From the NCBI RefSeq assembly GCF_000721075.1, contig NZ_JOEQ01000032.1, positions 1-64,000 of the forward strand: DNA of 64,000 bases. The letters are read 5' to 3'. Positions 11,154 to 52,428 of this stretch are shown piece after piece (position 1 is the stretch's first letter; every line of letters begins with the position of its first letter). The position numbers and the translations under genes are program-made. The notes under the pieces were generated by a model. It saw only the letters and a list, made by a program, of their open reading frames with translations. It searched no databases and had not been told where the DNA came from. Source of the DNA: Streptosporangium amethystogenes. Its GTDB lineage: Bacteria; Actinomycetota; Actinomycetes; Streptosporangiales; Streptosporangiaceae.

Positions 11154-13472
11154 TCAGGGACCAGCAGCCCCCTGTTCTGGGTACGTGACATCCGATCTGA
11201 CCGTGATCAGACGCAGCTCGGCGGTGTAGAGCTCGCCGTCGGCGTCCGGCAGCCAGAGGTGCTCCACGTCCGGCAACATCTCGGTGAGGGTGATCTCGCC
11301 ATCCTCCGACTCCGCGGTGCGGCGGATCAGCTTGGCCAGCAGGTTCACCATCGGCAGGCTGCGGAAGTCCACCGCCAGCGGCTTCTTCTCGCTCGGCACC
11401 CGGACGAAGCCGCGTTCGGGCAGGCCGTGCCGGAGCCGCCAGAGGCGGGCGGCGGCGTACCGCGAGCTCTCGTCCTTCAGCGCGGCCCAGGCGGGCTCGG
11501 CGGCCGGGAAGGTCCAGGCCTCGCGGCTCATGACCAGCCGGTCGATGGTGACGCGCGGCCGGTGCGGGGCTCGGCCGAGCGGGCGGAAGGAGTTGACCGT
11601 CAGCGCGGTGAGCAGGTCTCCGGCGGCCTCCAGGAAGGGGTGGGTCCTGCTCTCCTGGCGATGCCGGACCACGAGGTCCTCGCCTTCCCGCGTCACGAAC
11701 AGGTCCACGATGGAGTGCAGGGTCACGCCTAGCGGAGGGTCGGCCGACTCGACTCCGATGCTCAGGTAGGCGTTGCTCGGCAGCATGAGTTCCGGGGCCC
11801 GGGACATGCGGGAGGTGGTCAGCGGCGAGTCGGCCCGAGGGACGATCAGGAGCCGGCCGTCCGGATGGGTGGCGGCCATCGCCTCGCGCAACCGGCCGGG
11901 ATCGGGGTGCTGACTGACGAAGCTCCTGTTCTCGATGGTGTTGGCCGCGCAGTGCAGCTCGCCGAGCACGTAGCCGGCCTCGCCTCGGGCCAGGGCCTCG
12001 GCGTCAGGAGCGATCAGCATCAGGTCAGGGGAGAACCAGCGGGCTCCGCTCCACCGCGGCGGCCCCGCCGGGAACTCGAGAGCGACCTGATCGGCGATGT
12101 CGGCGGCCGAGATCTGGTGCTCTCGGGCCTGGGGCTCGCAGATCTCGGCCGAAGGCAGGCCGAGGATCCTGGCCCACTTCTCCTGGAACTCCGCCACCAC
12201 CTCGTGGACGATCTCCGACTCCGGGCTGAGCGTGAGCTGCCCGAGCTCCGGCATGAGCGTGGTCAGGAGCTGGAGCAGCGGCAACTCCTCGCGGCCGGTC
12301 CTGGCGCTCTCCCGGTCGAAGGTCTGGCGGGCCAGCACGGCATAGCGGTCGCCGACCGTGTTGACCAGCCAGGACGCGCTGTCGAGCAGGAGCCCGAGCG
12401 GCGCGGCCAGGGTGGCGATCGCCTGGTCGCCGATCCGGGCCTGGGCCGAGCGGACGGTGTCCTGGTAGACCAGGGTACGGCCAGCGTACAGGCCACCCGA
12501 GCGGCGGCCGGCCTCGCGGCCGGTGAGCCGTTCGAAGGTGTCGGCCAGCTCCTGCTGGGCCTTCATCAGCAGCTCGGCGTCGCCGGCGGCGGCCACGCCG
12601 TCCCGTGCCGCGACCAGCTCCTCCAGCGGCAGCCGGGCCAGATCGCGGACCGACGGGTCGGCGATCGCCTCGATCCTGGCCGCCAGCGTCCGCTCCGGCC
12701 AGGTCTCCAGCGGGCCGGACAGGTCGATGCGGATGGCGCCGACCTCGCGCAGCCGCAACAGGGCCGCCACCGTAGCCGGGACCGGCGGGTCGCCGACGAT
12801 CTCCCGCACGGTCCGCCGGCCGTCGCACCGGGCCAGGACCCTCAGCTCGGCGATCGTCAGCGTCACCGGCCGGTCGAAGGGCCGGCGCAGCAGCCCGCCG
12901 GTGAGCGAGGCCGACCGCGCGCGCCGGGGCCGCAGCCAGGGCCACACCTCCGGCCGGCCGGCGAGCGTGTCGGCCAGCGTGCCGATCGCCCAGTCCTCGA
13001 AGTAGGTGGTCCGGCTGGACAGGAAGCCCGTGCCGGGATCCACGACGATCCCGATCTCCTCCGGCACCACGCGGGCCCAGCCGAACGGGCCGAAGAAGCC
13101 GACCGTGTCGTTCTTGAGGCAGTAGCGCTGCAGGTAGGTCGCTATGGTCAGTTCGTGGCGGCGGCCGCTGCGGTTGGCACGCGACTCACCCGCCGCCGCC
13201 TTGTCCAGCGTGAAGCGGACCACCTGCGGGCTCTGCCAGGCCACCGCCTCGCGGAACTTGCCGTCCGCCGCGATCCGGCCGATCGCGGCGTTGAGCCGCT
13301 CGGAGGCGGCGGCGTAGGCCTCCGGATAGCCGGATCCGGAGTCCGCCGCAGCGGCGAGCTCCTCGTCGCAGATCTCCAGGAACCTCCTGGCCGGGAATCC
13401 GGCGCCGCGCAGCGCGACGTCCCGCCAGGCGGACCAGCCGGTACGGCCCAGCGGCGCGAGATGGCCGGCCAT
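11154..13472 (-). CDS. LanB-like (lantibiotic dehydratase N-terminal type) protein without elimination domain
   Basis: The 772-residue product belongs to the tRNA-dependent LanB superfamily. It shows REAVAWQSPQVVRFTLDK near the start, then the family hallmark YLQRYCLKNDTVGFFGPFGW, and later conserved stretches such as YFEDWAIGTLADTL and YAGRTLVYQDT. Full LanB dehydratases are about 1000 residues and end in a SpaB_C-like elimination domain; none is visible here. This size fits the small LanB/PEARL group that uses aminoacyl-tRNA. The start ATG overlaps the stop of the NRPS gene upstream (TGATG), so the pair is translationally coupled. No LanC, precursor peptide or second LanB is present, so an NRPS-bound or released peptide is a more likely substrate than a ribosomal peptide. 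That role is inference. Confidence 0.8.
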   Translation of the reverse strand: MAGHLAPLGRTGWSAWRDVALRGAGFPARRFLEICDEELAAAADSGSGYPEAYAAASERLNAAIGRIAADGKFREAVAWQSPQVVRFTLDKAAAGESRANRSGRRHELTIATYLQRYCLKNDTVGFFGPFGWARVVPEEIGIVVDPGTGFLSSRTTYFEDWAIGTLADTLAGRPEVWPWLRPRRARSASLTGGLLRRPFDRPVTLTIAELRVLARCDGRRTVREIVGDPPVPATVAALLRLREVGAIRIDLSGPLETWPERTLAARIEAIADPSVRDLARLPLEELVAARDGVAAAGDAELLMKAQQELADTFERLTGREAGRRSGGLYAGRTLVYQDTVRSAQARIGDQAIATLAAPLGLLLDSASWLVNTVGDRYAVLARQTFDRESARTGREELPLLQLLTTLMPELGQLTLSPESEIVHEVVAEFQEKWARILGLPSAEICEPQAREHQISAADIADQVALEFPAGPPRWSGARWFSPDLMLIAPDAEALARGEAGYVLGELHCAANTIENRSFVSQHPDPGRLREAMAATHPDGRLLIVPRADSPLTTSRMSRAPELMLPSNAYLSIGVESADPPLGVTLHSIVDLFVTREGEDLVVRHRQESRTHPFLEAAGDLLTALTVNSFRPLGRAPHRPRVTIDRLVMSREAWTFPAAEPAWAALKDESSRYAAARLWRLRHGLPERGFVRVPSEKKPLAVDFRSLPMVNLLAKLIRRTAESEDGEITLTEMLPDVEHLWLPDADGELYTAELRLITVRSDVTYPEQGAAGP

Positions 13473-16400
13473 CAGTTGTCGATCTCATCCAGGAGAGCGG
13501 CGAACTCCGCTCCGCCGAACCGCTCACCCTGAGCCTGGAGGATCAGCTGCGCCAGCCCCTCCACGGTCGGGGCCTCGAAGACCTGCCGGAGGGAGATCTC
13601 GATCACGAAGGACTCCCTGATCCTGGCGGTGAGCTGGGTGGCCAGCAGGGAGAAGCCGTTCAGCTCGAAGAAGGTGTCGTGGACGCCGACCCGCTCGGCC
13701 TGGAGCAGCTCCTCGAAGATCTCGGTCAGGCGGAGCTCGATCGGCGTGCGAGGAGCCACATAGGTGTCGGCGAGGGAGAGGTCGGACTCGGGCAGCGGAA
13801 GCACCGCGAGGTCGTAGCCGCCGTCCGGAGCCAGCTCCAGGCTCTCCTGGAGGAGCAGGTGGCCGGGGATCAGGCGGTCGGGCAGCCGGTTGCGCAGATG
13901 CTGCGCGATTTTGACCGTGCCCTCCTCGGGGTCGGGCCCGACCAGGTAGGCGACCAGCGCGAGATCACCTTCCGCCATGACCTGCTCGGTGACCAGCGCG
14001 TCGCGGATCTCCGGGAGCTCGCGCAGGATGGCCACGACGTCCCTCAGGTCGTCCCCGGGGTTCTCGCCGGCCCTGGCGACGAACTTCAGCGTGCCGTCGG
14101 TCCAGCGCCGGGCCAGGTCGCCGGTGTGGTCGCTGCCCACGCACAGCTCGGCCACCTCGCCGGTGGCCGCGTGCCGGTCGCCGGGGTGGCTCAGCCGTAC
14201 GGCGGGGCCGTTCCCGAGCGGCACGACCGTCGGCGCGGACTCCTGGCTCCAGTCCGCCGGGACCGGGTAGGCGGCGGCGGGCCGGCCGTCGCGGCCGAGG
14301 CGGTGGACGCCGACGGCCCGGCAGTCCGGGGCCAGGTTGCGCAGCGTGGTGATGTCGCAGGCCAGCAGGTCGCCGGAGTTCTCGATGAAGGCGTGGCGCA
14401 GAGCGGGCAGGTGGCCGCCGGCCAGGGATCGCAGGATCGGCGGCGTCAGGTAGACGACGGTAATCTCCTCGGCGCGCAGCCAGTCGAGGAGGTGTTCGCC
14501 TTCCTCCCGCAGGACCAGGGTCCCGCCGGCGGCCAGCGCGCTGGAGATCGCCGAGGTCACGTGCCCGGACAGGCCGGACAGTACGGCGAAGCGGTCGTCG
14601 GCGGTGAAGTCGGCTTGCGGAGCCGCAGGTCCGGGCAGCGCCAAGGGCAGATCGGCGTGTGGAGCCGCCGGTCCGGGCGGCGACGAGGGCGGATCGGCTT
14701 CCGCGTCGTCGGGTCCGACGAAGGGGCTGAGGTCGAGGACGGCGGCCGATGCGCCGGCTGCCGGGCTCACGTCCGCCACCACGTCCACTCCGAGAAGGTG
14801 GACGGGCACTGACCCGCTGTCCTCGATCACCGAGTAGGGCACCTCGGCCGCCACGCAACCCAGCACCGCGGCCACGAACCCGGCCGACTCCCGGCGCACC
14901 ACGCCGTAGTGGGCCCGGTCCCGGCCGGCCAGCGTCTTGGCGACCCGGCCGCTGGCCTGGGCCAGCCACCGGTGGCTCCACTCCCCTTGGCCGTCGCGGA
15001 CCGTACTGCCCGGCAGTCCCGGACGGTGCTCCGCCTCTCCTGACGGGAACTCCTCATGAGCGTCGGGCAGCGGGTAGTCCAGGATCTTCCGCTCCGGATC
15101 GGCGACCGCCGTCTCCAGCAGGGCCTGGAGATGCGTGAGGAAGGTCCGCATCATCTCCGGGTCGTAGCGGTCGGCGTTGAAGTCGAGGAAGATCTGGAGC
15201 GCTTCGTCGATCTCCTGCGCGGTCATGGTGAGGTCGAACTTGCTGGGCAGCGTGATCGCCTCCAGCGGCTTGACCTCGATCCCGCCGATCCGCTCCGGCT
15301 CCGGGCTGTCGATCATGTTGAGCAGCACCTGGAAGAGCGGAGAGCGACGAGGGTCGCGCGGGACCTGGAGTTCCTTGACGATGACGTCGAAAGGAGCGTC
15401 GGCGTGGGCCAGGCCGTCCAGCGTGACCTGCCTGGAGCGGCCGAGTAGCTCGGCGAAGCTCGGCTCGCCGGAGAGGTCGGCCCGGAAGGGCAGGGTGTTG
15501 ACGAAGAAGCCGATCAGCCCGTCGGTGCCCTCGGCGGCGCGTCCGGCCACCGGCACGCCGATCACCATGTCCTGCTGGCCGCACCAGCGGGACAGGACGG
15601 CGGTCACGCCGGCCATCATCGTCATGAACATGGTCACGCCGTGCCGGCGGCACAGCTCGTGCATCGCCGAGGTCAGCGAGGTCGGCAGGGCGAGTTCGAG
15701 GTGGTGGCCGGGAGACTGGCGCAGCGGGGTCAGGCTCTGCCTGGTGGGCAGCGCGAGCGGCGGCGGCGGGTCGGTCAGCCGCTGGCTCCAGTAGCCGACC
15801 TCTCGCCGCAGCGCGTCCCCGGTCAGGGTCTCGCGCTGCCAGACCGCGTAGTCGCGGTACTGGATCGGCAGCTCGGCCAGTCCGGCGCGTTCCACGTCAC
15901 CCCCGGCCTCGTAGAGGGCCGACAGCTCGCGGACCATGAGGCCGACCGACCAGGCGTCGGAGACGCTGTGGTGCATGGTGACCGACAGCAGGTGCTCGTT
16001 CTCGTCCAGGCGGAGCAACGCGCAGCGGAAGAGCGGCCCGGCGGCCAGGTCGAACGGGGTGGCGGCCTGCAGATCGGCCAGTAATCGAGCGGCCTCGCGC
16101 GGATCGGCCGGCCCGCTGGTGAGGTCGGTGAAGTCGAGGGCCCAGTCGTCGGGAAGCTCGTCCACGACCTGTGTCGGCCGGTCGTTCACCACCGGGAAGC
16201 GGCTGCGCAGCGTCTCGTGGCGCTGGAGGATCGCGCGGATGCTCGCCTCCATCGCGGCCAGGTCGAGCGGGCCGGTCAGCAGCCGCCGGCCGTGCACGTT
16301 GTAGGCCGCGCCGGGCCGTACCTGGTCCTCCAGCCACAGGCGCTCCTGCTCGTAGGAGAGCACCGGCTCGGCGTCGGCCGGCCGACGGCCGACGGCACGC

Positions 16401-16642
16401 GTACCGGGCACCGGCCGGGCGCCGGCGACCACCGCGGCGACCGTTGGTGAGGCGTAGAACTCCTTGATCGGGATCTGCAGGCCCACCTTCTTGCGGATGC
16501 GGGCCACGACCTTGGGGACGAGCAGCGAATGACCGCCCAGCTCGAAGAAGTCATCGAAGATCCCGAGATCCGGGCAGCCCAGGGCCTCGCGCCAGATGGC
16601 GGCGACGGCCTCCTCGTCGGATGTACGGGGAGCGTGTGCCAT
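13472..16642 (-). CDS. NRPS: PCP-C-A(degenerate)-PCP
   Basis: The 1056-residue protein starts at ATG 16642. PCP1 is near residues 8-75 (FELGGHSLL, Ser39). A C domain follows (about 90-515) with HHSVSDA at 224-230, keeping the catalytic second His. Residues about 530-960 occupy the place of an A domain but lack its signatures: FAVLSGLSGHVTSAI replaces the A3 phosphate loop, there is no YGPTE motif, the A8 hinge is missing, and APDGGYDLAVL replaces the A10 Lys segment. A Pro/Ala-rich repeated insert (PGPAAPHADL, PGPAAPQADF) lies within. PCP2 follows (FFELNGFSLL, Ser998). The A region is almost certainly inactive, so both PCPs must be charged in trans. PCP1 has no C domain of its own; the C domain ending the FAAL protein can complete it. 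The LanB-like gene is coupled downstream. Confidence 0.9.
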   Translation of the reverse strand: MAHAPRTSDEEAVAAIWREALGCPDLGIFDDFFELGGHSLLVPKVVARIRKKVGLQIPIKEFYASPTVAAVVAGARPVPGTRAVGRRPADAEPVLSYEQERLWLEDQVRPGAAYNVHGRRLLTGPLDLAAMEASIRAILQRHETLRSRFPVVNDRPTQVVDELPDDWALDFTDLTSGPADPREAARLLADLQAATPFDLAAGPLFRCALLRLDENEHLLSVTMHHSVSDAWSVGLMVRELSALYEAGGDVERAGLAELPIQYRDYAVWQRETLTGDALRREVGYWSQRLTDPPPPLALPTRQSLTPLRQSPGHHLELALPTSLTSAMHELCRRHGVTMFMTMMAGVTAVLSRWCGQQDMVIGVPVAGRAAEGTDGLIGFFVNTLPFRADLSGEPSFAELLGRSRQVTLDGLAHADAPFDVIVKELQVPRDPRRSPLFQVLLNMIDSPEPERIGGIEVKPLEAITLPSKFDLTMTAQEIDEALQIFLDFNADRYDPEMMRTFLTHLQALLETAVADPERKILDYPLPDAHEEFPSGEAEHRPGLPGSTVRDGQGEWSHRWLAQASGRVAKTLAGRDRAHYGVVRRESAGFVAAVLGCVAAEVPYSVIEDSGSVPVHLLGVDVVADVSPAAGASAAVLDLSPFVGPDDAEADPPSSPPGPAAPHADLPLALPGPAAPQADFTADDRFAVLSGLSGHVTSAISSALAAGGTLVLREEGEHLLDWLRAEEITVVYLTPPILRSLAGGHLPALRHAFIENSGDLLACDITTLRNLAPDCRAVGVHRLGRDGRPAAAYPVPADWSQESAPTVVPLGNGPAVRLSHPGDRHAATGEVAELCVGSDHTGDLARRWTDGTLKFVARAGENPGDDLRDVVAILRELPEIRDALVTEQVMAEGDLALVAYLVGPDPEEGTVKIAQHLRNRLPDRLIPGHLLLQESLELAPDGGYDLAVLPLPESDLSLADTYVAPRTPIELRLTEIFEELLQAERVGVHDTFFELNGFSLLATQLTARIRESFVIEISLRQVFEAPTVEGLAQLILQAQGERFGGAEFAALLDEIDN

Positions 16643-16741: not shown

Positions 16742-19700
16742 ATGCGAAGCGATCTTCCTGACTTCCCCACGGCTGCCGACACGACCACCCTGGCCGAGCT
16801 GCTGAGCTGGCGGGCCAGCCGCCAACCGGAGCGCGTCGGCTTCGTGTTCATGGGCGAGCACCTCGGCGACGAGCGTCCGGTGACCTACGAGCAGCTCGAC
16901 CGGCGGGCCCGGGCCGTCGCGGCCGAGCTGCGGCGAGCCGGTGTCGGCTTGGCCGACCGCGTCCTGCTGCTCTACCCGCCTGGTAAGGACTTCCTCACCG
17001 CCTTCCTCGGCTGCATGTACGCAGGCGCGGTGGCGGTGCCCACCTTCCCGCCCGACCCGATGCGGCTGGAGCGGACGCTGCCTCGCCTGCTGACGATCGT
17101 GGCCGACGCGCAGCCGGCCGCGCTGCTCACCATCGCGGCGCTGCTTCCGCTGGCCGACCAGCTTCCGCTGGGAGAGCTGGCCTGGATCGCGACCGACACC
17201 GCGCCGGACACCGACGACCGGACCGGATCCGGCGCCGACGCCTCCACCCTGGCGCTGCTCCAGTACACCTCGGGCTCCACCGCCGAGCCCAAGGGTGTGA
17301 TGCTGACCCACGGCAACCTGCTGCACAACTCCGGGCTCATCCAGGAGCTCTTCGGCACTGACGAAGAGGTCCGCGGCTTGAGCTGGCTGCCGCCGTACCA
17401 CGACATGGGCCTGATCGGCGGGCTCATGCAGCCGCTGTTCGCCGGGTTCCCGATGTGGCTGATGTCGCCGATCGACTTCCTTCGGCGGCCGGCGAGCTGG
17501 CTGGAGGCCATGTCGGGGCTGGGGCTGACGCTGAGCGGCGGGCCGAACTTCGCCTATGACCTGTGTGTCCGCAAGACCACGCCGGAGCAGCGGGAACAGT
17601 TCGACCTCAGCCAGTGGAGCGTGGCCTTCAACGGGGCCGAGCCGATCCGGCGGGCCACGCTGGAGCGCTTCGCCGAGGCCTTCCGGCCGGCGGGTTTCCG
17701 GCCCGAGGCGTTCTTCCCGTGCTACGGCCTGGCCGAGGCGACGCTGATCGTCAGCGGCGGCTTCGGCGTGCCCGCCGGAAAGGGGCCGGTCGGCTGTGGC
17801 CGGAGCGGCTCTGAGCAGGAGGTGCTGATCGTCGATCCGGTGACGGCGACGCCATGTCCCGCCGGTGAGGAAGGCGAGGTGTGGCTGCGCGGGCCGAGCG
17901 TCGCGGGCGGCTACTGGAACCGGACGGAGGAGAGCCGTGAGGTGTTCCAGGCCGTGTCGGCCGAAGGCGGCGGGCCGTACCTGAGGACCGGTGACCTGGG
18001 CAGGTCGGCCGATGGCGAGCTGACGATCACGGGCCGGCTCAAGGACCTGATCATCGTCAGGGGCCGCAACCACTACCCGCAGGACCTGGAGGCCACCGCC
18101 GAGCGGGCCGACCCCGTGCTGCGGCCGGGCTGCGGGGCCGCGTTCACCGTGAACGACGAGCCCGCGATCGTGCATGAGATCGTCCGTGGCGTTGAAGACG
18201 TGGACGTTGCGGCGGTGGCGCGGGCGATCCGGACTCTGGTGGCCGAGGAGCACGGCCTCCACCTCGGACTGGTGGTGCTGATCCCGGCCGGGCAGCTGCC
18301 CAAGACCACCAGCGGCAAGGTCCGCCGCCGGGTCTGCCGGGACCTGCTGCTGGCCGGAGAGCTGCCCGAGGTCGGCCGCAGCTCGATCGACCTGGAAGGT
18401 TTCCTGCGCGAGCAGACCGCCGCCGTCTGCGGCCTGCCCGCCGAGGATCTCGCGCGCGAACTTCCGCTGCTGGCCCTGGGCCTCGACTCGCTCGCCGCCC
18501 AGGAGCTCGCCCAGCGGGTCCAGACCGAGCTGGGAGTACGGCTTCCGCTCGAAGACCTGCTCGGCGGCGCTTCCCTGGCCGACCTCACCTCGCTGTCCGA
18601 CTTCGCCTCGCCGGCGGCCCAGGAGGCCCAGGCGGCCGAAGGCACCGCGCAGGTGTCGGAGGGCCAGCGGGAGTTGTGGCTCCTGCACCGGCTCGACCCG
18701 GAGAGCACCGCCTACACCACGGCCGCCGCCTTCCGGCTGCACGGCTCGCTCGACGAGGAGGCGTTACGTCGGGCCTACGGCCGGCTCCAGCAGCGGCACC
18801 AGGCCCTGCGGACGGTCTTCGCCGACCGGGACGGCGAGCCGGTGCCCGTCGTCCGAAAGAACTGCCAGGGCTTCTACTCGGTGGCCGAGCTCGGCGAGGC
18901 CGGGCTGCAAACGAGGCTGGAGCACGACGCGAACCGGCCGTTCGACCTGGCCATCGGCCCGTTGGCCCGGCTGCACCTCTACCGGCTCGCCGACGGCACG
19001 CACGCGTTGCTCTTCGCCGCGCATCACGTCGTGACCGACTTCTGGTCCACGATGATCCTCGGCCGGGAGCTGGAGGCCCTTTACGGCGAGGAGAGCGGCG
19101 GCCCGGCCGCTGAGCTACCGGCGCCGGCCGAGGCCGGCTCGTTCCCGCGATCGGAGCAGGCGGGACGGGGAGACCGGCCGGTGCTCAGCGGTCCGGGCGG
19201 GACCCGCAGGTTCCGGCTCGGCACGTCCCTGGCGGCCGGGCTGGCCGATCGCGCGGCGGCCGAAGGCACGACGCTCAACGTCTTCCTGCTCGCCGCCTAC
19301 CAGGCACTCCTGCACCGGGTCACCGGCCAGGACGACCTGACGGTCGGCGTCCCCTTCGCCGCTCGCACGCATGCCCGCCTGACCGGCCTGGTCGGCTACT
19401 TCATGAACCCGGTGCCGATCCGGAGCCAGGCCCGCGACAGCTTCCGTGAGCTGCTGGCCGAGACCAGGAGCCAGGTGATCGGCGCGCTGGAGCGGCAGGA
19501 CCGCCGTGACGGCGACCGCTTCCGGGCCATGTTCGTCTTCAACCAGCCGGCCTCCGCCGACGTCGCGACCTTCCCGGCGCTGCTGCTCGGTCACGCCGGC
19601 CTCCGGCGCTCGTTCGGCGGGCTGCGGGCCGAGTCGTTACCGGTCGGGCTGCGCGAGTGCGCCATGGATCTGGAGCTGTCGCTGACCGTCCTCGACGGCG

Positions 19701-29607: not shown

Positions 29608-29610
29608 GAC

Positions 29611-30319: not shown

Positions 30320-30511
30320 TCAGCGTGCGCTCAACGGACGCAGGTCGGTCCAGGTCCGCTCCACGTACTCCAGGCACGCCTCGCGGCTGTCCTCACCGTG
30401 GACCGTGCGCCAGCCGGCTGGCACCGGGAGGTGGCCCGGCCAGAGCGAGTGTTGCTCCTCGTCGTTGGCCAGCACCAAAAAGACGCCATCGGGATCATCG
30501 AACGGGTTCAT
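30320..30511 (-). CDS. MbtH-like NRPS accessory protein
   Basis: The 63-residue protein shows the family signature: N-terminal [32 protein letters not shown] and [14 protein letters not shown]. MbtH proteins bind A domains and support their folding or activity. The gene directly precedes the Cys-thioesterase gene with a one-base gap. Since the next NRPS in this operon has no functional A domain, its clients are presumably the A enzymes encoded elsewhere in the cluster. Confidence 0.96.
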
Positions 30512-32405: not shown

Positions 32406-32408
32406 GGT

Positions 32409-42129: not shown

Positions 42130-43215
42130 GTGACCGACTTCGAGATCCGCGCGAACGACCGCCGCCTGCCGGACGCTGAACGCGCGGAGATCCTCGCCGC
42201 GCCGGGATTCGGGCAGCACTTCACCGACCACATGATCACCATGCGCTGGTCGGCGGGCAGCGGCTGGCATGACGGCCGGCTGGAGCCCTACGGTTCGTTC
42301 ACCCTCGACCCGGCCAGCCTGGTCTTCCACTACGGCCAGGAGTTCTTCGAGGGCATGAAGGCCTACCGCCGGGACGACGGCTCGGTCGCCCTGTTCCGGC
42401 CCGAGGCCAACGCCGCGCGGTTCAACCGGTCGGCGCGGCGCATGGAGATGCCCGAGATGCCGGTCGAGATCTTCGTCCGGGCTCTGGAGCTCCTCGTCTC
42501 CCAGGACCAAGCGTGGGTCCCGCACACCTTCGGCGAGAGCCTCTACCTGCGGCCCTTCATGATCGCCACCCAGCGCGGCCTGGCCTTCACACAGCCCTCC
42601 TCCAGCTACCTGTTCTGCGTCATCGCCTCTCCCGCCACCGCCTACTTCGGTGGCGGGACTCCGCGTGCGCTGACCGTCTGGTTGTCGGAGGACTACTCGC
42701 GCGCGGCCCCCGGCGGCACCGGCTTCGCCAAGGCCGGCGGCAACTACGCCGGTGCCTACGCCGCCTCCCGCCAGGCCGTCGAGCAGGGCTGCGACCAGGT
42801 GGTCTGGCTCGACTCCGGCGAGCACCAGTGGGTGGAGGAGATGGGCGGCATGAACCTCTTCTTCGGGTACGGCGAGCGGATCATGACTCCGTCGCTCACC
42901 GGCACGCTGCTGCCCGGCGTCACCCGTGACTCGCTGCTGACGCTGGCGCCTCGCCTCGGCATCGAGGCCGAGGAAGGCCGGATCTCCATCTCCCAGTGGC
43001 GCAAGGAGTGCGAGAGCGGCGTCATGACCGAGGCCTTCGCCTGCGGCACGGCCGCCGTGATGGCGCCGGTCGGCACGGTCCGCGGCGTCGGCAAGGAGTG
43101 GCTGATCGGCGACGGCCGCCCGGGCCCGGTCACCCTCCGCCTGCGCGAAGAGCTCCTGGGCATCCAGTACGGCCGCCGTCCCGATCCGCTCAGCTGGGTG
43201 CACCGAGTTTGCTGA
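42130..43215 (+). CDS. Class IV (branched-chain-type) aminotransferase
   Basis: The 361-residue protein matches IlvE-type enzymes: GQEFFEGMKAYRRDDG (front of the active site), LYLRPFMIAT, the PLP Lys in GFAKAGGNYAGAYAA and the EEMGGMNLFF motif. GTG 42130 is selected with AAGGA upstream. The enzyme interconverts a 2-oxo acid and an amino acid with glutamate. In this operon it might supply a branched-chain precursor, such as for the Val-like A domain, or re-aminate the keto acid from the MppP-like enzyme. The 3' end overlaps the convergent NRPS gene by 26 bp. Confidence 0.88.
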   Translation: MTDFEIRANDRRLPDAERAEILAAPGFGQHFTDHMITMRWSAGSGWHDGRLEPYGSFTLDPASLVFHYGQEFFEGMKAYRRDDGSVALFRPEANAARFNRSARRMEMPEMPVEIFVRALELLVSQDQAWVPHTFGESLYLRPFMIATQRGLAFTQPSSSYLFCVIASPATAYFGGGTPRALTVWLSEDYSRAAPGGTGFAKAGGNYAGAYAASRQAVEQGCDQVVWLDSGEHQWVEEMGGMNLFFGYGERIMTPSLTGTLLPGVTRDSLLTLAPRLGIEAEEGRISISQWRKECESGVMTEAFACGTAAVMAPVGTVRGVGKEWLIGDGRPGPVTLRLREELLGIQYGRRPDPLSWVHRVC

Positions 43216-46200: not shown

Positions 46201-47716
46201 CGACCCGCCGGCGGAAGAGCTCGATGAAGGTCGGCCCTTCGGCGCTCTCCCTCTCCGCTTCCACGACGGGTTCGGGGCCGCCGAGCACCACACTCTCCAC
46301 CGGCTGGTCCGGCGTGGCGACGATCTGGCGCACGATCTCATGGAGCTGGTCGGCCAGGAGCCGCACGGTCTCCGCGTCGAAGAGCTCGGTCATGTACTGC
46401 CACTGGAGCTCCAGCCGGTCGTCCTTCGGGATGACCGCGACGGTCAGGTCCACCGAGGCCAGGCCGAGATCCATCGGCTCCGGCGTCAGCCGCAGTCCGG
46501 GCAGCTCCAGCGCGGTGTCGGGGACGGTGAGCACGTTGAGCCACATGCCGCTCAGCGAGGTCTGCGAGGCTTCGCGGCCCAGGCCCAGGGCCTCGATCAG
46601 CCGGTCGAACGGCACGTCCTGGTGGTTGAGAGCGTCGGAGACGGTGTCACGGGCCTGGCGTACGACCTCGCGCAGTGTGTGGCCGGAATCGAGCCGCATG
46701 CGCAGCGGAAGCGGGTTGGCGAAGCAGCCGATGAGCCGCTCGGTCTCGACCCGCGTGCGGCCGGAGACCAGGGAACCCACGACGAGGTCGTCCTGCTCCA
46801 GGTGCCGGTGCATGAGCACCGAGCAGGCGGCGAGCATGACCGTGCCGAGCGAGGCGCCTTCCTGCTCCAGGAAGCGGCGCAGCTCGGCGCTGAGCTCGAC
46901 AGAGAGGTGGACCGAGACCACGTCGCCGGTGAAGGCCGGCCGGGCCGGATACGGCCGGTCGGTCCGCAACGCCGAGCCGGTCGGGATGCCCTCCATCACC
47001 TCCCGCCAGTACTTCACCTCCTCGGAGATGCGCTGCTCGTCGAAGAGGTCGCGCTGCCAGGCGGCGTAGTCGCCGAACTGGATCATCGGCGGCGGCGGGG
47101 GCACTCCCTGGCCGCTCTGCGCGAGATAGAGCTGCGCGACCTCCTGCACGATGATCGACAGCGACCAGGCGTCCGAGGCGGCGTGGTCGGTGGCGAACAG
47201 CGCGACCTCGGTCTCCTCGGCCAGGTGGAACATGGTGATCCGGAGCCGCTGCGGGTCCTTCGGATCGAACCGGCGCGAGACCTCCGCCAGGCAGCGCCGC
47301 CGTAATTCGTCCCGCTGTTCGTCCGGTGCGAGGTCGGACAGGTCGACGACCGGGATCGGTACGCGGCTCACCTCGTGCACCGTCTGGATCGGCGTGCCGC
47401 TCGCGTCGAGGCCGAAGGTGGATCTGAGCACCTCGTGCCGCTCGACCACCTGGGTGAGCACCGCGCTGAGCAGATCCAGGTCCAGCTCGCCTTCGATGCG
47501 GAAAGCACCGGTGATGTTGTTGGCGCCGCGGAAGCGCTCCACGGCCCATTCCCGCTGCTGCGCGATGCCCAGCGGGGTCGGGCCGGAACGGTCTCGCGGC
47601 CTGATCCTATCGTCCGGCGGGGACACCCGTGCTGACATCAACTCGGCGAGCCTCCGCTCGAGAAGCTCCCGCTTCTCGGGGGGCAGGGCGGCGATCCGAC
47701 TCAGCTCATCAGTCAC
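43190..47716 (-). CDS. NRPS: C-A-PCP-E(degenerate)
   Basis: The 1508-residue protein starts at GTG 47716 without a clear ribosome site. After a short charged helix (about 1-30) comes a C domain with DHAASDA at 177-183 (catalytic second His kept, first His to Asp). The A domain (about 480-990) is complete (YTSGSTGRPKG, VYGLTETTVS, NGKVDRAKL). Its pocket reads D-V-E-E-I-G-V-V-S-K; two glutamates favour a basic residue such as Arg, Orn or a cyclic Arg derivative. A PCP (IGGDSILAIQ) follows. Residues about 1090-1500 are an epimerisation-type domain (LVAHHDGLRQRF, RTVGWFSRSYPV, FSYLGPLDRL), but the catalytic HHxxxDG is VHRLAADA, so the second His is Arg. Epimerisation is doubtful. Confidence 0.93.
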   Translation of the reverse strand: MTDELSRIAALPPEKRELLERRLAELMSARVSPPDDRIRPRDRSGPTPLGIAQQREWAVERFRGANNITGAFRIEGELDLDLLSAVLTQVVERHEVLRSTFGLDASGTPIQTVHEVSRVPIPVVDLSDLAPDEQRDELRRRCLAEVSRRFDPKDPQRLRITMFHLAEETEVALFATDHAASDAWSLSIIVQEVAQLYLAQSGQGVPPPPPMIQFGDYAAWQRDLFDEQRISEEVKYWREVMEGIPTGSALRTDRPYPARPAFTGDVVSVHLSVELSAELRRFLEQEGASLGTVMLAACSVLMHRHLEQDDLVVGSLVSGRTRVETERLIGCFANPLPLRMRLDSGHTLREVVRQARDTVSDALNHQDVPFDRLIEALGLGREASQTSLSGMWLNVLTVPDTALELPGLRLTPEPMDLGLASVDLTVAVIPKDDRLELQWQYMTELFDAETVRLLADQLHEIVRQIVATPDQPVESVVLGGPEPVVEAERESAEGPTFIELFRRRVALAPYSPAVVCDGVPTRFGELNREAERLARHLRARGVGEGTKVGILVERSPRLPVAILGVLMAGAAYVPVDPTYPPERITFMLADAEVGALVTQRDMVPGDGLPEQVVYLDDPLDELDGELPAPSPDALAYVIYTSGSTGRPKGTMIEHRSLAVFARDIVDRLGLGSGDRFLQFASAGFDVHVEELFPTWLAGGAVVIPTQHFISGQADLTDLIERERMTVIELPTAYWHEWVRELDRQGRELPPSLRLVIIGGERILPERLALWRRLGVPLMHVYGLTETTVSSTFYRLDPADPDYDWPNLPIGTPIPSAELHLLDSRLRPVPPGGVGELYIGGASVARGYLGRPGLTAMRFVADPARPGRRLYRTGDLIRQRADGSLEFISRVDTQIKIRGFRVEPLEIESMLSEHPGLAAAVVTVHEPTPGDRRLVAYIVRRPEPAVSHAELRRFLEQTLPPYMVPSVFIDIDELPLNHNGKVDRAKLPAPDGGRPELSEEFVAPRTPLEQRLAAIVAGVVGVDEIGVNDNFFEIGGDSILAIQVVARSQEAGIRLEPYDLFANPTVGLLAGVAVAGAVVDAEQGEVTGPVHLVAEQQRFALAGHDEPRRWTVSATLELSGTADPDQVRQAAERLVAHHDGLRQRFLMAGERTRLRIAPCGDAIPVDVHDLSGLGEEERAGRIRQLAESPEAELDLAVGPLLRLALVHSGAGRPDRIVLTVHRLAADATSMRILLEDLEALLAGRELADKTTSWQSWARRLSRHAGTPAVQSQREHWSALLSEHVGRLPYDGSAEHAGLISSERSVVATLDAEATAALSRGPQGIETILLTALGRTLSGWTGAERHVVDLERHDREPIFDDVDLTRTVGWFSRSYPVLLDGVTATKAAPLGGIGWRLLHHGSDPLPDSPAELRFSYLGPLDRLLSHAASPHGRRPYPVEVEASIVAGSLVVRWSYSEDLHACQSIQALADGYLEKLRELIGAGPAPADFPLARVSADQLEQLLSKLGAPS

Positions 47717-47770: not shown

Positions 47771-47830
47771 GTAATGAAGAGAGGGAAATCTATAGCTTTG
47801 TGGCGGGTCCGCGTGTCGCGAAGGAGTGTT

Positions 47831-47890
47831 ATGAAGCCGTTCGATGACAACCCGCGCAGCGCCAGCCGTACTGTTCTCGGCCAGCGATGA
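47831..47890 (+). CDS. 19-codon leader frame with an MbtH-like start
   Basis: An AAGGAG ribosome site five bases upstream opens ATG 47831 and the frame MKPFDDNPRSASRTVLGQR, which ends with TGA at 47888-47890. That stop overlaps the ATG of the A-PCP gene at 47887 (ATGA), so the leader probably drives its translation by coupling. The opening residues resemble the start of MbtH proteins (compare MNPFDDPDG at 30511), suggesting the remnant of an mbtH gene whose body was lost. Confidence 0.6.
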   Translation: MKPFDDNPRSASRTVLGQR

Positions 47891-49707
47891 TGGCGACGAT
47901 GGCCATGCCGCGGTGCGTGCACGAGATGGTGGCCGAGCAGGCCGCCCGCACGCCGGATCGGATCGCGATCAGTTACGTGGGGGCCACCCTCACCTACCGC
48001 CAGCTCGACCGCGCCGCCGATGCTCTGTCGGTACGGCTGCGCGAGGTCGGGGTCGGCGGAGGGGCGGTGGTCGCCGTCGTCATGGGCCGCACGCCTGAGC
48101 TCATCGTCACTTTGACGGCGATCCTCAAGTCCGGCGGCGCCTATCTCTATCTCGACCCCGCCGAACCGCAGGCCCAGCGTGCCCGGATCGTGCGGGACGC
48201 TCAGGCCAGGTTCGCCGTCGTGGGTGTGGATTTCCTTGATCACGCGCCGGAGGTGGCCCAGGTGCTGCCGCTGGAGCGTGACATGATCGCTTTGGCTGGC
48301 TCCGCGACCGATCCCCTCGGCGGGCTCACGCATCCGGACACCCCGGCCTACGTCTGCTACACCTCCGGCTCGACCGGCGAGCCCAAGGGAGTGGTGGTCT
48401 CTCACACCGCCATCTGGCGGCTGATCGACCAGCCCACCTGGATCGACGTCCGCGACGACGACGTCTTCCTGCAACTGACCCGGGTCGGGTTCGACGTCTC
48501 CACTTTCGAGATCTGGATGCCGCTGGTGCGCGGCTGCCGGCTAGCGCTCGCGCCGACCGGGCACGCCGACCTGGAAGAGATCGTGGCGGTGGTCAAGGCG
48601 GAGGAAGTCACCGTCCTCTGGCTGACCACCGGCCTCTTCCACAAGATCGTCACCCATCACCTCGACGGCCTGGCCGGCGTCCGGCACCTGCTGGCCGGCG
48701 GCGACGTCCTCTCGCCGACGCACGTGCAGCGGGTGATGTCCCACTATCCCGGCCTGATCTTCACCAACGGCTACGGCCCGACGGAGAACACCACCTTCAG
48801 CACCTGCTGGACGACGAGCCAGATCAGCTCCGCCTCGCGGGTGCCGATCGGCATCCCTATCGACGGCAGCACCGCCGCCGTGCTCGACGACCGGCTCCGG
48901 CCGGTGGCGCCGGGCGAGATCGGCGAGCTGTGGGTCGGTGGCCACGGCGTGGCCATCGGCTATCTCAACCGGCCCGGCGCGACCGCCGAGAAGTTCGTGG
49001 CCGACTGCGACCCCTCCGCACCACCAGGCAGCCGGATGTATCGCACCGGCGACCTGGCGCGCTGGGAGGAGGACGGCACGCTGGACTTCCTCGGCCGGGC
49101 CGACCGCCAAGTCAAGATCCGCGGGTATCGGGTCGAGCTGAGCACCGTCGAGGTGGAGCTCTCCTCCTACGAGGAGGTGGAGCAGGCCGCGGCCCTGACC
49201 TACACCGACGGTGCCGGCGACACCAAGCTGCTCGCCTACGTCGCGGTCGGCCAGCAGGTGGACCCCGAGGAGCACGGCGCGTTCGGCGTGACGCTGCGTG
49301 AGCGGCTGCAGGCGGTCTTCCCGGCGCATCTGGTGCCGTGGGCGGTCATCGTGCTGCAGGACATCCCGCTCAACCCGAACGGCAAGGTGGATCGTTCCGC
49401 CCTGCCCACCAAGATCCCTCGCAACGTGTGGAACGACTACGTCGAGCCGCGCGACCCGACCGAACAGCTCCTGGCCGAGATCTGGAGCGACGCGCTGGAC
49501 GTCGAGCCGATCGGGGTCGAGGACAACTTCTTCGAGCTCGGCGGCCACTCTCTGCTCGCCGCCGAGCTGCTGGCTGTTCTGCACCACACCTTCGACGTCA
49601 AGCTGCCGGCCCGCACGTTGTTCCTGCGGCCAACCATCGCGGATCTCGCGGAGGAGCTGCGTCGCCAGGGCGTCGACAAGGAGGCCACCAATGCGGGAAC
49701 CCGATAG
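47887..49707 (+). CDS. NRPS didomain A-PCP, Val-like code
   Basis: The 606-residue protein has a full A domain (about 10-510: YTSGSTGEPKG, NGYGPTENTT, RADRQVKIRGYRVEL, NGKVDRSAL) and a PCP (LGGHSLLAAE). The pocket reads D-V-F-W-L-G-G-T-F-K, one change from the common valine code D-A-F-W-L-G-G-T-F-K, so Val or a similar aliphatic residue is likely. It is followed by an overlapping P450 gene and a thioesterase-fold gene. This order matches A-PCP/P450/TE cassettes (for example NikP1-NikQ-NikP2) that beta-hydroxylate a carrier-bound amino acid and pass it on or release it. Confidence 0.92.
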   Translation: MMATMAMPRCVHEMVAEQAARTPDRIAISYVGATLTYRQLDRAADALSVRLREVGVGGGAVVAVVMGRTPELIVTLTAILKSGGAYLYLDPAEPQAQRARIVRDAQARFAVVGVDFLDHAPEVAQVLPLERDMIALAGSATDPLGGLTHPDTPAYVCYTSGSTGEPKGVVVSHTAIWRLIDQPTWIDVRDDDVFLQLTRVGFDVSTFEIWMPLVRGCRLALAPTGHADLEEIVAVVKAEEVTVLWLTTGLFHKIVTHHLDGLAGVRHLLAGGDVLSPTHVQRVMSHYPGLIFTNGYGPTENTTFSTCWTTSQISSASRVPIGIPIDGSTAAVLDDRLRPVAPGEIGELWVGGHGVAIGYLNRPGATAEKFVADCDPSAPPGSRMYRTGDLARWEEDGTLDFLGRADRQVKIRGYRVELSTVEVELSSYEEVEQAAALTYTDGAGDTKLLAYVAVGQQVDPEEHGAFGVTLRERLQAVFPAHLVPWAVIVLQDIPLNPNGKVDRSALPTKIPRNVWNDYVEPRDPTEQLLAEIWSDALDVEPIGVEDNFFELGGHSLLAAELLAVLHHTFDVKLPARTLFLRPTIADLAEELRRQGVDKEATNAGTR

Positions 49708-50911
49708 CGGCTGTCCGGTCGGCGGGCTGGCGGACCCGATGCTCTACACGAGCCTCGACTTCCGCGAGCGCTGGGACGACCTGCGCGACCTGGACCACCT
49801 CGAATGGCAGCAGGCCGACGAGCGCAACGGCTTCTGGTCGGTGCTGAAGTACCACGACGCCGACCGAGTGCTCCGCGACGCGGCCACCTTCACCTCCGAA
49901 CGCGGGACCTTGCTCAACATCATCGGAGTGGAGGACCCGGCCGGCGGCAGGCAGATCGCCGCCACCGACCCGCCGCGCCACACGATCATGCGGGCCCGGC
50001 TGCAGAAGGCCCTGTCCATCAAGGCCGCCGAACGCCAGCACGAGCTCATCCGCGACCTGATCCTGGAGATCATCCAGCCGCTGGCCGACGACGGATCGTT
50101 CGACTTCGCCCAGGCCATGCTGATGTTGCCGGTCGCGGTCGGCGGCGAGATGATGCGGCTGCCCCGCTCGGACTGGCCCCGGCTGGAGAAGCTGCTCAAC
50201 GCCTCGATCGCGCCGGACGACCCCGAGTACCGGATGCCAGGCGGCCCCAGGAGCACGCTCGACCAAGCCCACCGCGAGCTGTTCGCCTACTTCCAGGACA
50301 TCTACCACGAGCGCCACCGCAACCTCGGCGACGACCTGATCAGCGTCCTGATCACCACCGAGGTGGACGGCCGGACCATGACGCCGGGCGAGGTCATGTC
50401 CAACTGCTACAGCGTGCTGCTCGGCGCGGTGGTGACCACGCCACACTCGCCGAACTACGTCATGTCCGAGCACATCGGCGACGGGTTGCTGGAGAAGTGG
50501 GCCGCCGACCAGTCGGTTACCGTCTCCGCGGTGGAGGAGGCCCTGCGGCTGGCCTCGCCGGTCAGCCACTTCATGCGCTACGCCGTCAAGGACACCGAGG
50601 TCCACGGCACGGAGATCAAGGCAGGGGACGCGGTGGTCACCTGGCTCGGCGCGGCCAACCGCGACGAGGAGGTCTTCCCCGACGCGCAGCGCTTCGACCT
50701 GCGCCGCAGGCCCAACAAGCACCTGGCCTTCGGGATCGGCCCGCACTACTGCGTCGGCCACACGCTGGCCCGGGTCACCCTGCGGATCCTCTTCACCGAG
50801 CTGCTCACCCGCTTCACCGGCTTCGAGCCGGCCGGTGAGCAGGTCCGGATGCACTCCAACTTCATCTCCGGCTACAAGCACCTGCCCATCGCCGCGAAGG
50901 TCATCGCCTGA
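49691..50911 (+). CDS. Cytochrome P450, probable amino acyl-PCP hydroxylase
   Basis: The 406-residue protein shows an I-helix LLGAVVTTPHSP, EEALRLASPV (ExxR) and the haem loop FGIGPHYCVGHTLARV. It overlaps the A-PCP gene by 17 bp and precedes the Cys-type thioesterase-fold gene. P450s in this setting use the aminoacyl-S-PCP as substrate and usually place a beta-hydroxyl group, here perhaps beta-hydroxy-Val. The MREPDSGCPVGG start is ATG 49691. Confidence 0.9.
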   Translation: MREPDSGCPVGGLADPMLYTSLDFRERWDDLRDLDHLEWQQADERNGFWSVLKYHDADRVLRDAATFTSERGTLLNIIGVEDPAGGRQIAATDPPRHTIMRARLQKALSIKAAERQHELIRDLILEIIQPLADDGSFDFAQAMLMLPVAVGGEMMRLPRSDWPRLEKLLNASIAPDDPEYRMPGGPRSTLDQAHRELFAYFQDIYHERHRNLGDDLISVLITTEVDGRTMTPGEVMSNCYSVLLGAVVTTPHSPNYVMSEHIGDGLLEKWAADQSVTVSAVEEALRLASPVSHFMRYAVKDTEVHGTEIKAGDAVVTWLGAANRDEEVFPDAQRFDLRRRPNKHLAFGIGPHYCVGHTLARVTLRILFTELLTRFTGFEPAGEQVRMHSNFISGYKHLPIAAKVIA

Positions 50912-50935
50912 CCCGAACTCCAGGAGGCCCGTCCC

Positions 50936-51676
50936 ATGTCCCAGCAGAGGCAGCGCGACAAGTGGCTGCCCGCCATGCCCTCGGCCTCGGCGACTGGACG
51001 GGTCTTCCTGATCCCGTACTCGGGCTGCGGAGCCAGCATGTACCGCAGGTGGCCGCGGCAACACGACGGCGTCGAATTCCTGCCGGTCGAGCTGCCCGGA
51101 CACGAGACACGCTTCGCTGAGCCCACCTACCAGAGCTACCAGGAACTGGCCGCGAGCATGGCGGACGCGCTGGAGCCGTACCTCGACGTGCCCTTCGCCT
51201 TCTTCGGCCACTGCGGCTCGGCCCTGGCCGCCTACGAGACCTCGGCCGAGCTGGTGCGCACCGGCAGGCCCGCGCCGGCCAACCTCTACGTCTCCTCCGA
51301 GGTCGCTCCGCAGGACGGCCCGGCGGGCCGCTTCCTGTCCATGAACGACGTCGAGCTCGGCGCCGAGCTGGAGAAGCTGATCCGCGAGCTGGGCGGCACG
51401 CCTTCGCCCGAGCTGATCGAGCTCTACGTCGAGGTGCTCCGCTCCGACGTCGAGGTCAACAAGCGCTACGTGGTGCCCGATCCACTGCGGCTGCCCGGCC
51501 CGATCACCGCGATCGGCTGGACCGAGGACGACGAGATCCCCTACTCGACCATGGGCGGCTGGGACGCGTGCGGCGAGGCGACCTCAGTGCTCCTGAGGGG
51601 CAAGCACCATCGCTTCCTTGACGGCTCCGCCGACCTGCTGGAGGTGCTGTGCACGGGTCTCAAAGCCAAGCGCTGA
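50936..51676 (+). CDS. Thioesterase-fold protein with Cys nucleophile, probable aminoacyl shuttle
   Basis: The 246-residue alpha/beta-hydrolase is a close relative of the protein at 29611-30318 (shared FLPVELPG, PYLDVPFAFFGHCGSA, YVSSEVAPQDGPAGRFLSM, ITAIGWTEDDE, GKHHRF). The nucleophile elbow is GHCGSA, so Cys93 replaces Ser. Following an A-PCP and a P450, it may transfer the modified aminoacyl group to an A-less module, in the manner of SyrC/CmaE. A GGAGG site lies nine bases before ATG 50936. Confidence 0.85.
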   Translation: MSQQRQRDKWLPAMPSASATGRVFLIPYSGCGASMYRRWPRQHDGVEFLPVELPGHETRFAEPTYQSYQELAASMADALEPYLDVPFAFFGHCGSALAAYETSAELVRTGRPAPANLYVSSEVAPQDGPAGRFLSMNDVELGAELEKLIRELGGTPSPELIELYVEVLRSDVEVNKRYVVPDPLRLPGPITAIGWTEDDEIPYSTMGGWDACGEATSVLLRGKHHRFLDGSADLLEVLCTGLKAKR

Positions 51677-52428
51677 CGGGTGACCGCCGCTGGCTCAAAA
51701 GATTCAGCCGCCCCTCGCCGGGCGGCGTCCAGCTTCTCTGCTTCCACAGCGGCGGCGCCAGCGCGGGCATGTTCCGCCACTGGGCCACGCTGGCGGCCCC
51801 GGGCATCGACGTGGTCGCGGTCCAGTTACCCGGCAGGGCCGACCGCTTCGGCGAGTCTCCCTACCGCCGGATGGGCCCGCTGATCGACGACTTCATCACC
51901 GCCGTCGAGCCGCTGCTGGCCCAGCCGTTCGCGCTGTACGGCACGAGCATGGGTGCCCGCGTGGCGTGGGCCTTCGCTCACGAGTTACGTGAGCGGGCTC
52001 TGCCGCAGCCGCGTGCTCTCTATGTGGCGGCCAGCGCCGCTCCTTGCCTGGACGACGGGAACTGGACCTGGGAGGGCCGGGACGACGGCCTGGAGGGTTA
52101 CGTCCGCGAGATGGGCGGCACTCCGGCCGAGGTGCTGGCCGAACCCCAGCTGCTCGCCGTCCTGCTGGCCACGCTCGACGCCGACCTGACCGTGCTCAGC
52201 ACGCATGGCTTCCAGCCTGCGGCTCCGCTCGACCTGCCGATCCACGCGTTCGCCGGCTCGGATGATCCGGAGTCGCCGCCTGAGCGAATGATGGGCTGGA
52301 AGGCCGAGACCACCGCCGGGTTCGATCTCACCTCTGTTCCCGGCGGTCACTTCTTCGACCGGGAGGGCGACAGCCTGGTCATCGAGACGATCGGGGCCGA
52401 CCTGGGCTTGGGCAGGGAGAAGCCATGA
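51649..52428 (+). CDS. Conventional type II thioesterase
   Basis: The 259-residue protein has LLCFHSGGASAGMFRHWA, VQLPGRADRFGES, the normal Ser nucleophile in LYGTSMGARVAWAF and the catalytic His in VPGGHFFDRE. Such enzymes hydrolyse wrong or blocked acyl groups from carrier domains. GTG 51649, preceded by GGAGG, lies inside the end of the previous gene (28-bp overlap). Its normal Ser contrasts with the two Cys relatives and makes it the likely housekeeping editor. Confidence 0.9.
   Translation: MHGSQSQALTGDRRWLKRFSRPSPGGVQLLCFHSGGASAGMFRHWATLAAPGIDVVAVQLPGRADRFGESPYRRMGPLIDDFITAVEPLLAQPFALYGTSMGARVAWAFAHELRERALPQPRALYVAASAAPCLDDGNWTWEGRDDGLEGYVREMGGTPAEVLAEPQLLAVLLATLDADLTVLSTHGFQPAAPLDLPIHAFAGSDDPESPPERMMGWKAETTAGFDLTSVPGGHFFDREGDSLVIETIGADLGLGREKP

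What the first reader, a model, noticed from the sequence alone, without database searches (positions are those of the whole stretch)
11154..52428. Four A-deficient carrier domains matched by four detached adenylation enzymes
Seen: PCP1 and PCP2 of the protein at 13472-16642 and both PCPs of the protein at 25861-29607 have no intact A domain in cis. Seen: four A enzymes stand outside C-A-PCP modules (23011-24450 A; 34835-37381 A-PCP-TE; 37538-39787 A-PCP; 47887-49707 A-PCP). Known: in-trans loading exists for syringomycin, coronamic acid and barbamide. Inference: most of this line is charged in trans, with each residue modified on its own carrier by a P450, halogenase or hydroxylase before transfer. 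The scale and the equal count are unusual. Six C domains in total are available.
Basis: partly seen in the sequence, partly recalled or inferred. Interest (0 to 1): 0.9.

Follow-up and report, generated by a model that had tools for sequence, protein, structure and literature searches.

The report
Peptide line charged by separate loaders
A soil actinomycete carries a peptide-making assembly line in which several stations have lost their own amino-acid loader and seem to be fed by separate loading enzymes and cysteine-based shuttle proteins, an arrangement also seen in related bacteria.

Summary
Trans-charging gains support: of 13 clusters annotated, the 10 with an A-less carrier all encode a cysteine-nucleophile thioesterase, the 3 without have none; loader and acceptor types also tend to travel together. 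The 'degenerate A' of 13472-16642 is a conserved pseudo-A: P-loop, Asp235 and Lys517 lost in 36 of 36 homologues, fold predicted kept. New: the C domain ending at 23011 bears the published ureido signature EHHXXHDG, and the LanB-like gene overlapping 13472-16642 resembles the PEARL that acts after chain reversal. No loading and no product was tested.

The parts
11154..13472 (-). LanB-like protein (PF04738 only, no PF14028), PEARL-like candidate; its ATG overlaps the stop of 13472-16642
13472..16642 (-). N1: PCP1-C-pseudoA-PCP2; two carriers without an intact A in cis
13778..15010 (-). Pseudo-A domain of N1: P-loop, Asp235 and Lys517 lost, fold predicted kept
16742..23014 (+). FAAL-ACP-C-A-PCP-C (start codon chosen by eye); A code DAEDIGTVVK
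22091..22114 (+). EHHMVHDG, the ureido-forming C signature EHHXXHDG, in the last C domain of the FAAL protein
23011..24450 (+). Stand-alone A, Thr-type code DFWNIGMVHK; read as middle piece of split C|A|PCP module
24440..25468 (-). VioC/GntD-type arginine/enduracididine beta-hydroxylase
25861..29607 (-). N2: C-PCP1-C-(A remnant)-PCP2; PCP1 has no A at all, PCP2 only an A fragment
29611..30318 (-). CysTE1: type II thioesterase-like with Cys nucleophile (GHCWS), candidate aminoacyl shuttle
30320..30511 (-). MbtH-like small protein (by motif)
30551..31315 (-). PhzF-family protein of the Pro cassette
31296..32405 (-). Fatty-acid-desaturase-like protein of the Pro cassette
32409..33083 (-). Haem-oxygenase-like oxidase of the Pro cassette
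33080..33949 (-). Asp/Arg-hydroxylase-like protein (TIGR04531-like, under its cut-off) of the Pro cassette
33949..34845 (-). SyrB2-family (TIGR01762) enzyme with HxV (WHQVETY) at the SyrB2 HxA site
34835..37381 (-). A-PCP-TE, Pro-type code DVQFVAHLVK, TE with Ser (GWSFG); read as precursor station
37538..39787 (+). Detached A-PCP, code DVWFFGCNVK; clade built in in 3 and detached in 9 clusters
39784..40905 (+). MppP-like PLP enzyme (243 bits, under the TIGR04462 cut-off of 450)
40902..42089 (+). Cytochrome P450 (P450a)
42130..43215 (+). Branched-chain aminotransferase (start chosen by eye)
43190..47716 (-). N3: C-A-PCP-E, code DVEEIGVVSK
47887..49707 (+). Detached A-PCP, Val-type code DVFWLGGTFK
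49691..50911 (+). Cytochrome P450 (P450b), next to the Val-type A-PCP
50936..51676 (+). CysTE2: type II thioesterase-like with Cys nucleophile (GHCGS), candidate aminoacyl shuttle
51649..52428 (+). Ordinary type II thioesterase with Ser (GTSMG)

Best explanation
A FAAL-initiated NRPS line in which several carriers are charged from outside their own protein. Shown from sequence: A-less carriers, detached A(-PCP) enzymes, Cys-nucleophile thioesterases, and their joint presence or absence across clusters. Inferred: (a) the Thr-type A at 23011 charges PCP1 of 13472-16642 as the A part of a module split over three proteins; (b) the Val-type A-PCP 47887 holds its residue while P450b oxidises it, and CysTE2 moves it to PCP2 of 13472-16642; (c) the six-gene Pro cassette (A-PCP-TE, SyrB2-family enzyme, hydroxylase, haem-oxygenase-like oxidase, desaturase-like enzyme, PhzF) makes an unusual amino acid that its TE frees, A-PCP 37538 re-activates it, and CysTE1 delivers it to PCP1 of 25861-29607; (d) PCP2 of 25861-29607 has no assignable loader, its cis A having been lost; (e) the C domain ending at 23011 makes a urea and the LanB-like protein extends the freed carboxylate. 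Steps (a)-(c) are the core claim; (e) is a further inference.
For: Census of 13 clusters: 10 with an A-less carrier all have a GHC-type TE, 3 without have none. The 37538-type A: cis in G020, G021, G022 (each with a C upstream, 152-172 bits), detached in 9 (no C, under 7 bits), one clade with support 100; the 9 detached have a Cys-TE in the stretch, the 3 cis have none. 120 of 120 listed CysTE1 homologues carry Cys (324 passed the cut-off, 120 were listed). N2-type C-PCP recurs in G018, G242, G1080, each with the detached 37538-type A and CysTE1. G221 has N1 plus the 47887/P450b/CysTE2 unit but neither the Pro cassette nor N2. A-PCP-TE is in 3 clusters without any A-less carrier. Gene overlap C|A (4 bases) and N-terminal PCP of N1 for the split module. 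Precedents: LgnA TEII moves Thr between carriers; barbamide hydrolysis and re-activation; albicidin Alb04 serves an inactive A (passages).
Against: No biochemistry. 12 of the 13 clusters were found through the SyrB2-family gene of the cassette, so they are not an unbiased sample, and window/G002, G016/G017 and G020/G021 are sister pairs. The stretches of the three cis clusters are shorter (40-60 kb against 58-140 kb), so a Cys-TE could lie outside. In G016/G017 the only A-less carrier is on a distant, weakly similar NRPS. G354 has the detached 37538-type A and CysTE1 but no N2-type C-PCP, and G018, G242 and G1080 have 4 A-less carriers but 1 GHC-type TE. G221 has two further detached A-PCPs that could serve N1 instead. 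LgnA, the proven TEII shuttle, uses Ser, so Cys is not needed for the job. The urea step needs a free amine on the upstream residue, not obvious behind FAAL-ACP-C.
Confidence: 0.55

Rival explanations
1. One reading: four detached A enzymes each charge one of four A-less carriers, A-PCP-TE included (for example a Pro derivative to PCP2 of 25861-29607).
For: Counted this way the numbers are 4:4 in the window and S. becharense; PCP2 of N2 otherwise has no loader; no other stand-alone terminal TE is seen on the line proteins.
Against: A-PCP-TE is present in G020, G021, G022 where no A-less carrier was found; counted this way the numbers differ in the other 11 of 13 clusters (my count); the TE keeps a hydrolytic-type Ser motif GWSFG in 12 of 12.
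Confidence: 0.2
2. The A-less modules are decayed or skipped, so the detached A enzymes serve other purposes.
For: The same N2 module has an intact Ser-type A in G018 and G242, so its loss is recent; PCP2 of N2 has the second highest dN/dS of the eight PCPs measured (0.44).
Against: The N1 pseudo-A is kept at 399-454 aa in 36 homologues with new conserved residues; dN/dS 0.43 for it and 0.24 for the N2 remnant against 0.24-0.43 for six intact A domains; carrier Ser and C-domain His motifs kept.
Confidence: 0.08
3. The A-less carriers are charged by A domains within the line (reaching neighbouring carriers) or by an A enzyme elsewhere in the genome, and the Cys-TEs are editing enzymes.
For: In G018, G242 and G1080 A-less carriers outnumber detached A enzymes, so at least one loader there serves more than one carrier or lies elsewhere; the rest of the genome was not searched for A enzymes.
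Against: Joint presence and absence of Cys-TE and A-less carriers; an ordinary Ser-type TEII is already present for editing at 51649.
Confidence: 0.12

Closest known systems
Syringomycin SyrB1/SyrB2/SyrC (review passages, PMC8949500)
   Same: Detached A-PCP, SyrB2-family enzyme, shuttle, line module without A
   Different: Several detached A enzymes instead of one; shuttles are TEII-like with Cys; the SyrB2-family enzyme sits with a Pro-type A-PCP-TE and has HxV
Legonindolizidine LgnA/LgnB/LgnD (PMC8748450 passages)
   Same: TEII-type enzyme moves an aminoacyl group from a detached A-T to a line carrier
   Different: LgnA has Ser77 in GHSXG; here Cys, in a separate conserved clade
Barbamide BarA/BarC (PMC8748450 passages)
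   Same: Residue tailored on a separate carrier, hydrolysed, then re-activated by another A domain
   Different: Here A-PCP-TE with five further enzymes and a Pro-type code; product unknown
Albicidin Alb04, ramoplanin and enduracidin stand-alone A-T (PMC8949500 passages)
   Same: Stand-alone A-T complements an inactive A domain in the line
   Different: Here the inactive A of N1 is a family-wide pseudo-A with its own signature
Threopeptin SnaA/SnaE, ureido C plus PEARL-like LanB (PMC11212132, text parts 1-3 of 6)
   Same: C domain with EHHXXHDG and a LanB-annotated protein without elimination domain in one cluster
   Different: Here behind FAAL-ACP-C-A-PCP, with a split A and an A-less acceptor protein; ureido product not shown

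Membership tests
In-trans A-PCP/shuttle systems (syringomycin, LgnA type) | Detached A or A-PCP enzymes | tested here: met
In-trans A-PCP/shuttle systems (syringomycin, LgnA type) | Line module without a working A | tested here: met
In-trans A-PCP/shuttle systems (syringomycin, LgnA type) | Alpha/beta-hydrolase shuttle encoded alongside | tested here: met
   two TEII-like proteins with GHC motif; shuttle activity itself not tested
In-trans A-PCP/shuttle systems (syringomycin, LgnA type) | Transfer of the residue to the line carrier | not testable with these tools
   needs loading assays
LgnA-type TEII translocase | Ser nucleophile in GHSXG | tested here: not met
   GHCWS and GHCGS; so it may work like LgnA but is not filed as one
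Ureido-forming C domains | EHHXXHDG active-site motif | tested here: met
   EHHMVHDG at 22091-22114
Ureido-forming C domains | Ureido product | not testable with these tools
   no product known
PEARL / NRPS-associated LanB | PF04738 fold without elimination domain PF14028 in the neighbourhood | tested here: met
   PF04738 only; both PF14028 hits of the genome lie on another contig; fold as MibB, TbtB, MadB, NisB
PEARL / NRPS-associated LanB | Extra conserved residues for ATP-dependent phosphorylation | not tested
   listed in a supplementary figure not seen
Carrier-dependent Fe/2OG halogenases (SyrB2) | TIGR01762 cut-off and SyrB2 homology | tested here: met
   312.4 bits, cut-off 226.3; 2fct 235.9 bits
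Carrier-dependent Fe/2OG halogenases (SyrB2) | Small residue (Ala/Gly, recalled) at the chloride site HxA/G | tested here: not met
   Val in 12 of 12 cassette members, Ala in 4 of 4 second copies; so called SyrB2-family enzyme, not halogenase
VioC/GntD beta-hydroxylases | NCBIfam cut-offs | tested here: met
   TIGR03946 499.4 (cut-off 418.6), NF041363 428.5 (cut-off 345)
MppP (enduracididine) | TIGR04462 cut-off | tested here: not met
   243.3 bits, cut-off 450; called MppP-like only

The most novel reading that the evidence does not exclude
A two-directional, largely trans-charged lipo-ureidopeptide line: a ureido-forming C, a free-standing Thr-type A and an A-less protein together reverse the chain, a tRNA-dependent LanB-like enzyme extends the freed end, and other stations are fed through Cys-nucleophile TEII shuttles. 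The pseudo-A would be a conserved, catalytically dead adenylation fold kept as a docking platform for the incoming loader or shuttle.
Probability: 0.3. Interest if true: 0.82.

Novelty: new variant of a known kind. Interest (0 to 1): 0.62.

Why it matters
Trans-charging breaks the collinearity rule used to predict peptides from genomes. Here one A-domain clade occurs both built in and detached, a natural set for finding what lets a loader work in trans. The Cys-TEII marker and the pseudo-A signature may flag other A-less modules. The Pro cassette, seen from actinobacteria to Pseudoalteromonas, points to an amino acid I could not identify. The ureido-C and LanB pairing carries a published pair into another line architecture and makes it testable there.

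Tried and rejected
Rejected: the equal count as a meaningful feature. A-PCP-TE as a line loader (three clusters without A-less carriers). The 23011 A as a free trans loader (gene order and overlap); in G354 a stand-alone A with another code lies directly upstream of N1 instead. The N1 pseudo-A as recent decay. LanB as an ordinary dehydratase (no PF14028 on this contig). LanB as the missing fourth loader: considered, then dropped because LanB-positive G221 and G354 have no N2.

Results against the reading: N1 occurs without LanB in G018, G242 and G1080. LanB relatives at 46-50% identity in G075, G341 and G057 lie beside C domains without the ureido motif, though only 4-18 kb were read there. 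In 19 of 82 C domains the HH motif was not read by the script; a scan of all ORFs for the ureido motif found the same four only. G1080 showed no hydroxylase of the cassette. The 56% SyrB2-family relative in L030 showed no other cassette gene on its 9 kb contig, and the two at 31-36% (L032, L033) showed none either.

Led nowhere: Rfam and tRNA scans (none). Paper searches for a product or for trans-acting A enzymes listed no matching cluster; none listed a pseudo-A paired with a PEARL (open-access library only). LanB against PDB by sequence (best E 0.88). The product of the Pro cassette could not be named. Not done: PEARL ATP residues; a genome-wide search for further A enzymes.
Full report
WHAT IS THERE. 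The window is G000:C32:1-64000 of an unnamed 9.44 Mb genome. Pfam, NCBIfam and local profile scans give on the line: FAAL-ACP-C-A-PCP-C (about 16742-23014 +), A (23011-24450 +), PCP-C-remnant-PCP (13472-16642 -, 'N1'), C-PCP-C-remnant-PCP (25861-29607 -, 'N2'), C-A-PCP-E (43190-47716 -, 'N3'); off the line: A-PCP-TE (34835-37381 -), A-PCP (37538-39787 +), A-PCP (47887-49707 +). 23 of 23 genes tested lie in the same order in G002, about 86% identical in DNA; G002 is Streptosporangium becharense by equal contig length.

SPECIFICITY READINGS. Ten-letter codes were read by alignment; PheA numbering and the amino-acid meaning of codes are recalled, from no call. 23011: DFWNIGMVHK (Thr-type). 34835: DVQFVAHLVK (Pro-type). 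37538: DVWFFGCNVK (no match known to me). 47887: DVFWLGGTFK (Val-type). N3: DVEEIGVVSK. FAAL protein: DAEDIGTVVK.

RELATIVES. A scan of genome contigs with the SyrB2-family protein gave 10 loci; all 10 were scanned for the window's genes, 7 were followed up. Searches of 345, 391, 397, 390 and 197 genomes with the same protein added G242, G354 and G1080. G221 came from a LanB search of 170 genomes. 13 clusters, the window included, were annotated. Since 12 of them were found through, or contain, this protein, the cassette's presence in 12 of 13 is partly by choice. Its six genes (A-PCP-TE, SyrB2-family, hydroxylase, haem-oxygenase-like, desaturase-like, PhzF) are all present in 11 of the 12; in G022 they lie in two groups of three; G1080 showed no hydroxylase. 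The A-PCP-TE code is DVQFVAHLVK in 11 and DVQFIAHLIK in G022.

CIS AND TRANS. The A domain of 37538 belongs to a clade of 12 with support 100 (quick tree, SH-aLRT). It is built in as C-A-PCP in G020, G021 and G022 and detached in nine. The built-in ones have a C domain upstream (152-172 bits to a C profile); the nine detached have none (under 7 bits or not listed), though seven of the nine keep the C-A linker 'ERIL..LN', as if the C had been lost (window and G002 lack it). A script census found A-less carriers in 10 clusters, each with at least one GHC-type thioesterase, and neither in the other 3 (G020, G021, G022). Caveats: sister pairs (window/G002, G016/G017, G020/G021); stretches of 40, 56 and 60 kb for the three cis clusters against 58-140 kb; in G016 and G017 the only A-less carrier is on a distant, weakly similar NRPS. 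All 120 listed homologues of CysTE1 have Cys (324 passed, 120 listed).

WHO LOADS WHAT. The N2-type C-PCP recurs in G018, G242 and G1080, each with the detached 37538-type A and CysTE1; G354 has both enzymes but no such C-PCP. G221 has N1 and the 47887/P450b/CysTE2 unit (75, 81 and 73% identity) but neither cassette nor N2, so that unit goes with N1; G221 also has two more detached A-PCPs. The 23011 gene overlaps the stop of the C-ending protein by 4 bases, and N1 starts with a PCP; G221 has the same order (65% identity), and G354 has a stand-alone A with another code directly upstream of N1. In G018 and G242 the second N2 module has an intact Ser-type A, so the window lost it, and no loader can be assigned to N2 PCP2. 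A-PCP-TE is in three clusters with no A-less carrier; I read it as a precursor station of the barbamide kind (PMC8748450 passages).

THE COUNT. A-less carriers to detached A enzymes, A-PCP-TE(GWSFG) left out and A-PCP-C proteins taken as line parts (my count): window 4:3, G002 4:3, G354 4:4, G221 3:4, G018 4:2, G242 4:2, G1080 4:2 (4:3 if the A-PCP at 79439 is counted), G019, G016 and G017 1:1. So equal in 4 of 10.

UREIDO C AND LANB. The C at the end of the FAAL protein reads EHHMVHDG, the signature reported for ureido-forming C domains (PMC11212132, text parts 1-3 of 6). 4 of 82 C domains scoring over 100 have it (19 motifs not read; a scan of all ORFs found the same four). They are orthologues in exactly the four clusters with a LanB of 53% identity or more: window, G002, G221, G354. 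The LanB start codon overlaps the stop of N1. Ten contig lengths are shared between the 120 listed LanB hits and the 55 pseudo-A hits (by eye), one being G002. But N1 occurs without LanB in G018, G242 and G1080, and LanBs of 46-50% lie beside other C domains. The LanB model (pLDDT 90.7) matches MibB, TbtB, MadB, NisB and GodF, which does not tell a PEARL from a glutamylation domain; the lack of PF14028 on this contig does favour a PEARL (criterion). A free amine on the upstream residue is needed for a urea and is not obvious behind FAAL-ACP-C.

VERDICT. Assignments and chemistry are inferred; nothing was measured.

Noticed in passing
33949-34845 (-) and its counterparts in 11 other clusters: SyrB2-family enzyme with WHQVETY in 12 of 12 cassette members, Val where SyrB2 has Ala; second copies in G018, G242, G1080 have WHQADTF in 4 of 4. 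Its reaction may differ from chlorination.
   Followed up: partly
30551-37381 (-): Six-gene Pro-type amino-acid cassette shared by actinobacteria and Pseudoalteromonas luteoviolacea; product unknown.
   Followed up: partly
G018, G242, G1080: Thr-type stand-alone A with a separate small PCP beside a second SyrB2-family gene, like SyrB1/SyrB2.
   Followed up: partly
G221 and G354: A further block with C-A-PCP, C-pseudoA-PCP, two detached A-PCPs, P450s and a third Cys-TE type (GHCMG).
   Followed up: no
43217-44449 (-), E domain of N3: Highest dN/dS of the 31 segments measured against S. becharense (0.60); possibly relaxed.
   Followed up: no
9397-10545 (+): Transposase (DDE_3) just outside the cluster, near the LanB gene.
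   Followed up: no
53855-59654: Aminotransferase, metallophosphoesterase and penicillin-amidase-type protein beyond the MFS exporter; membership in the cluster unclear.
   Followed up: no
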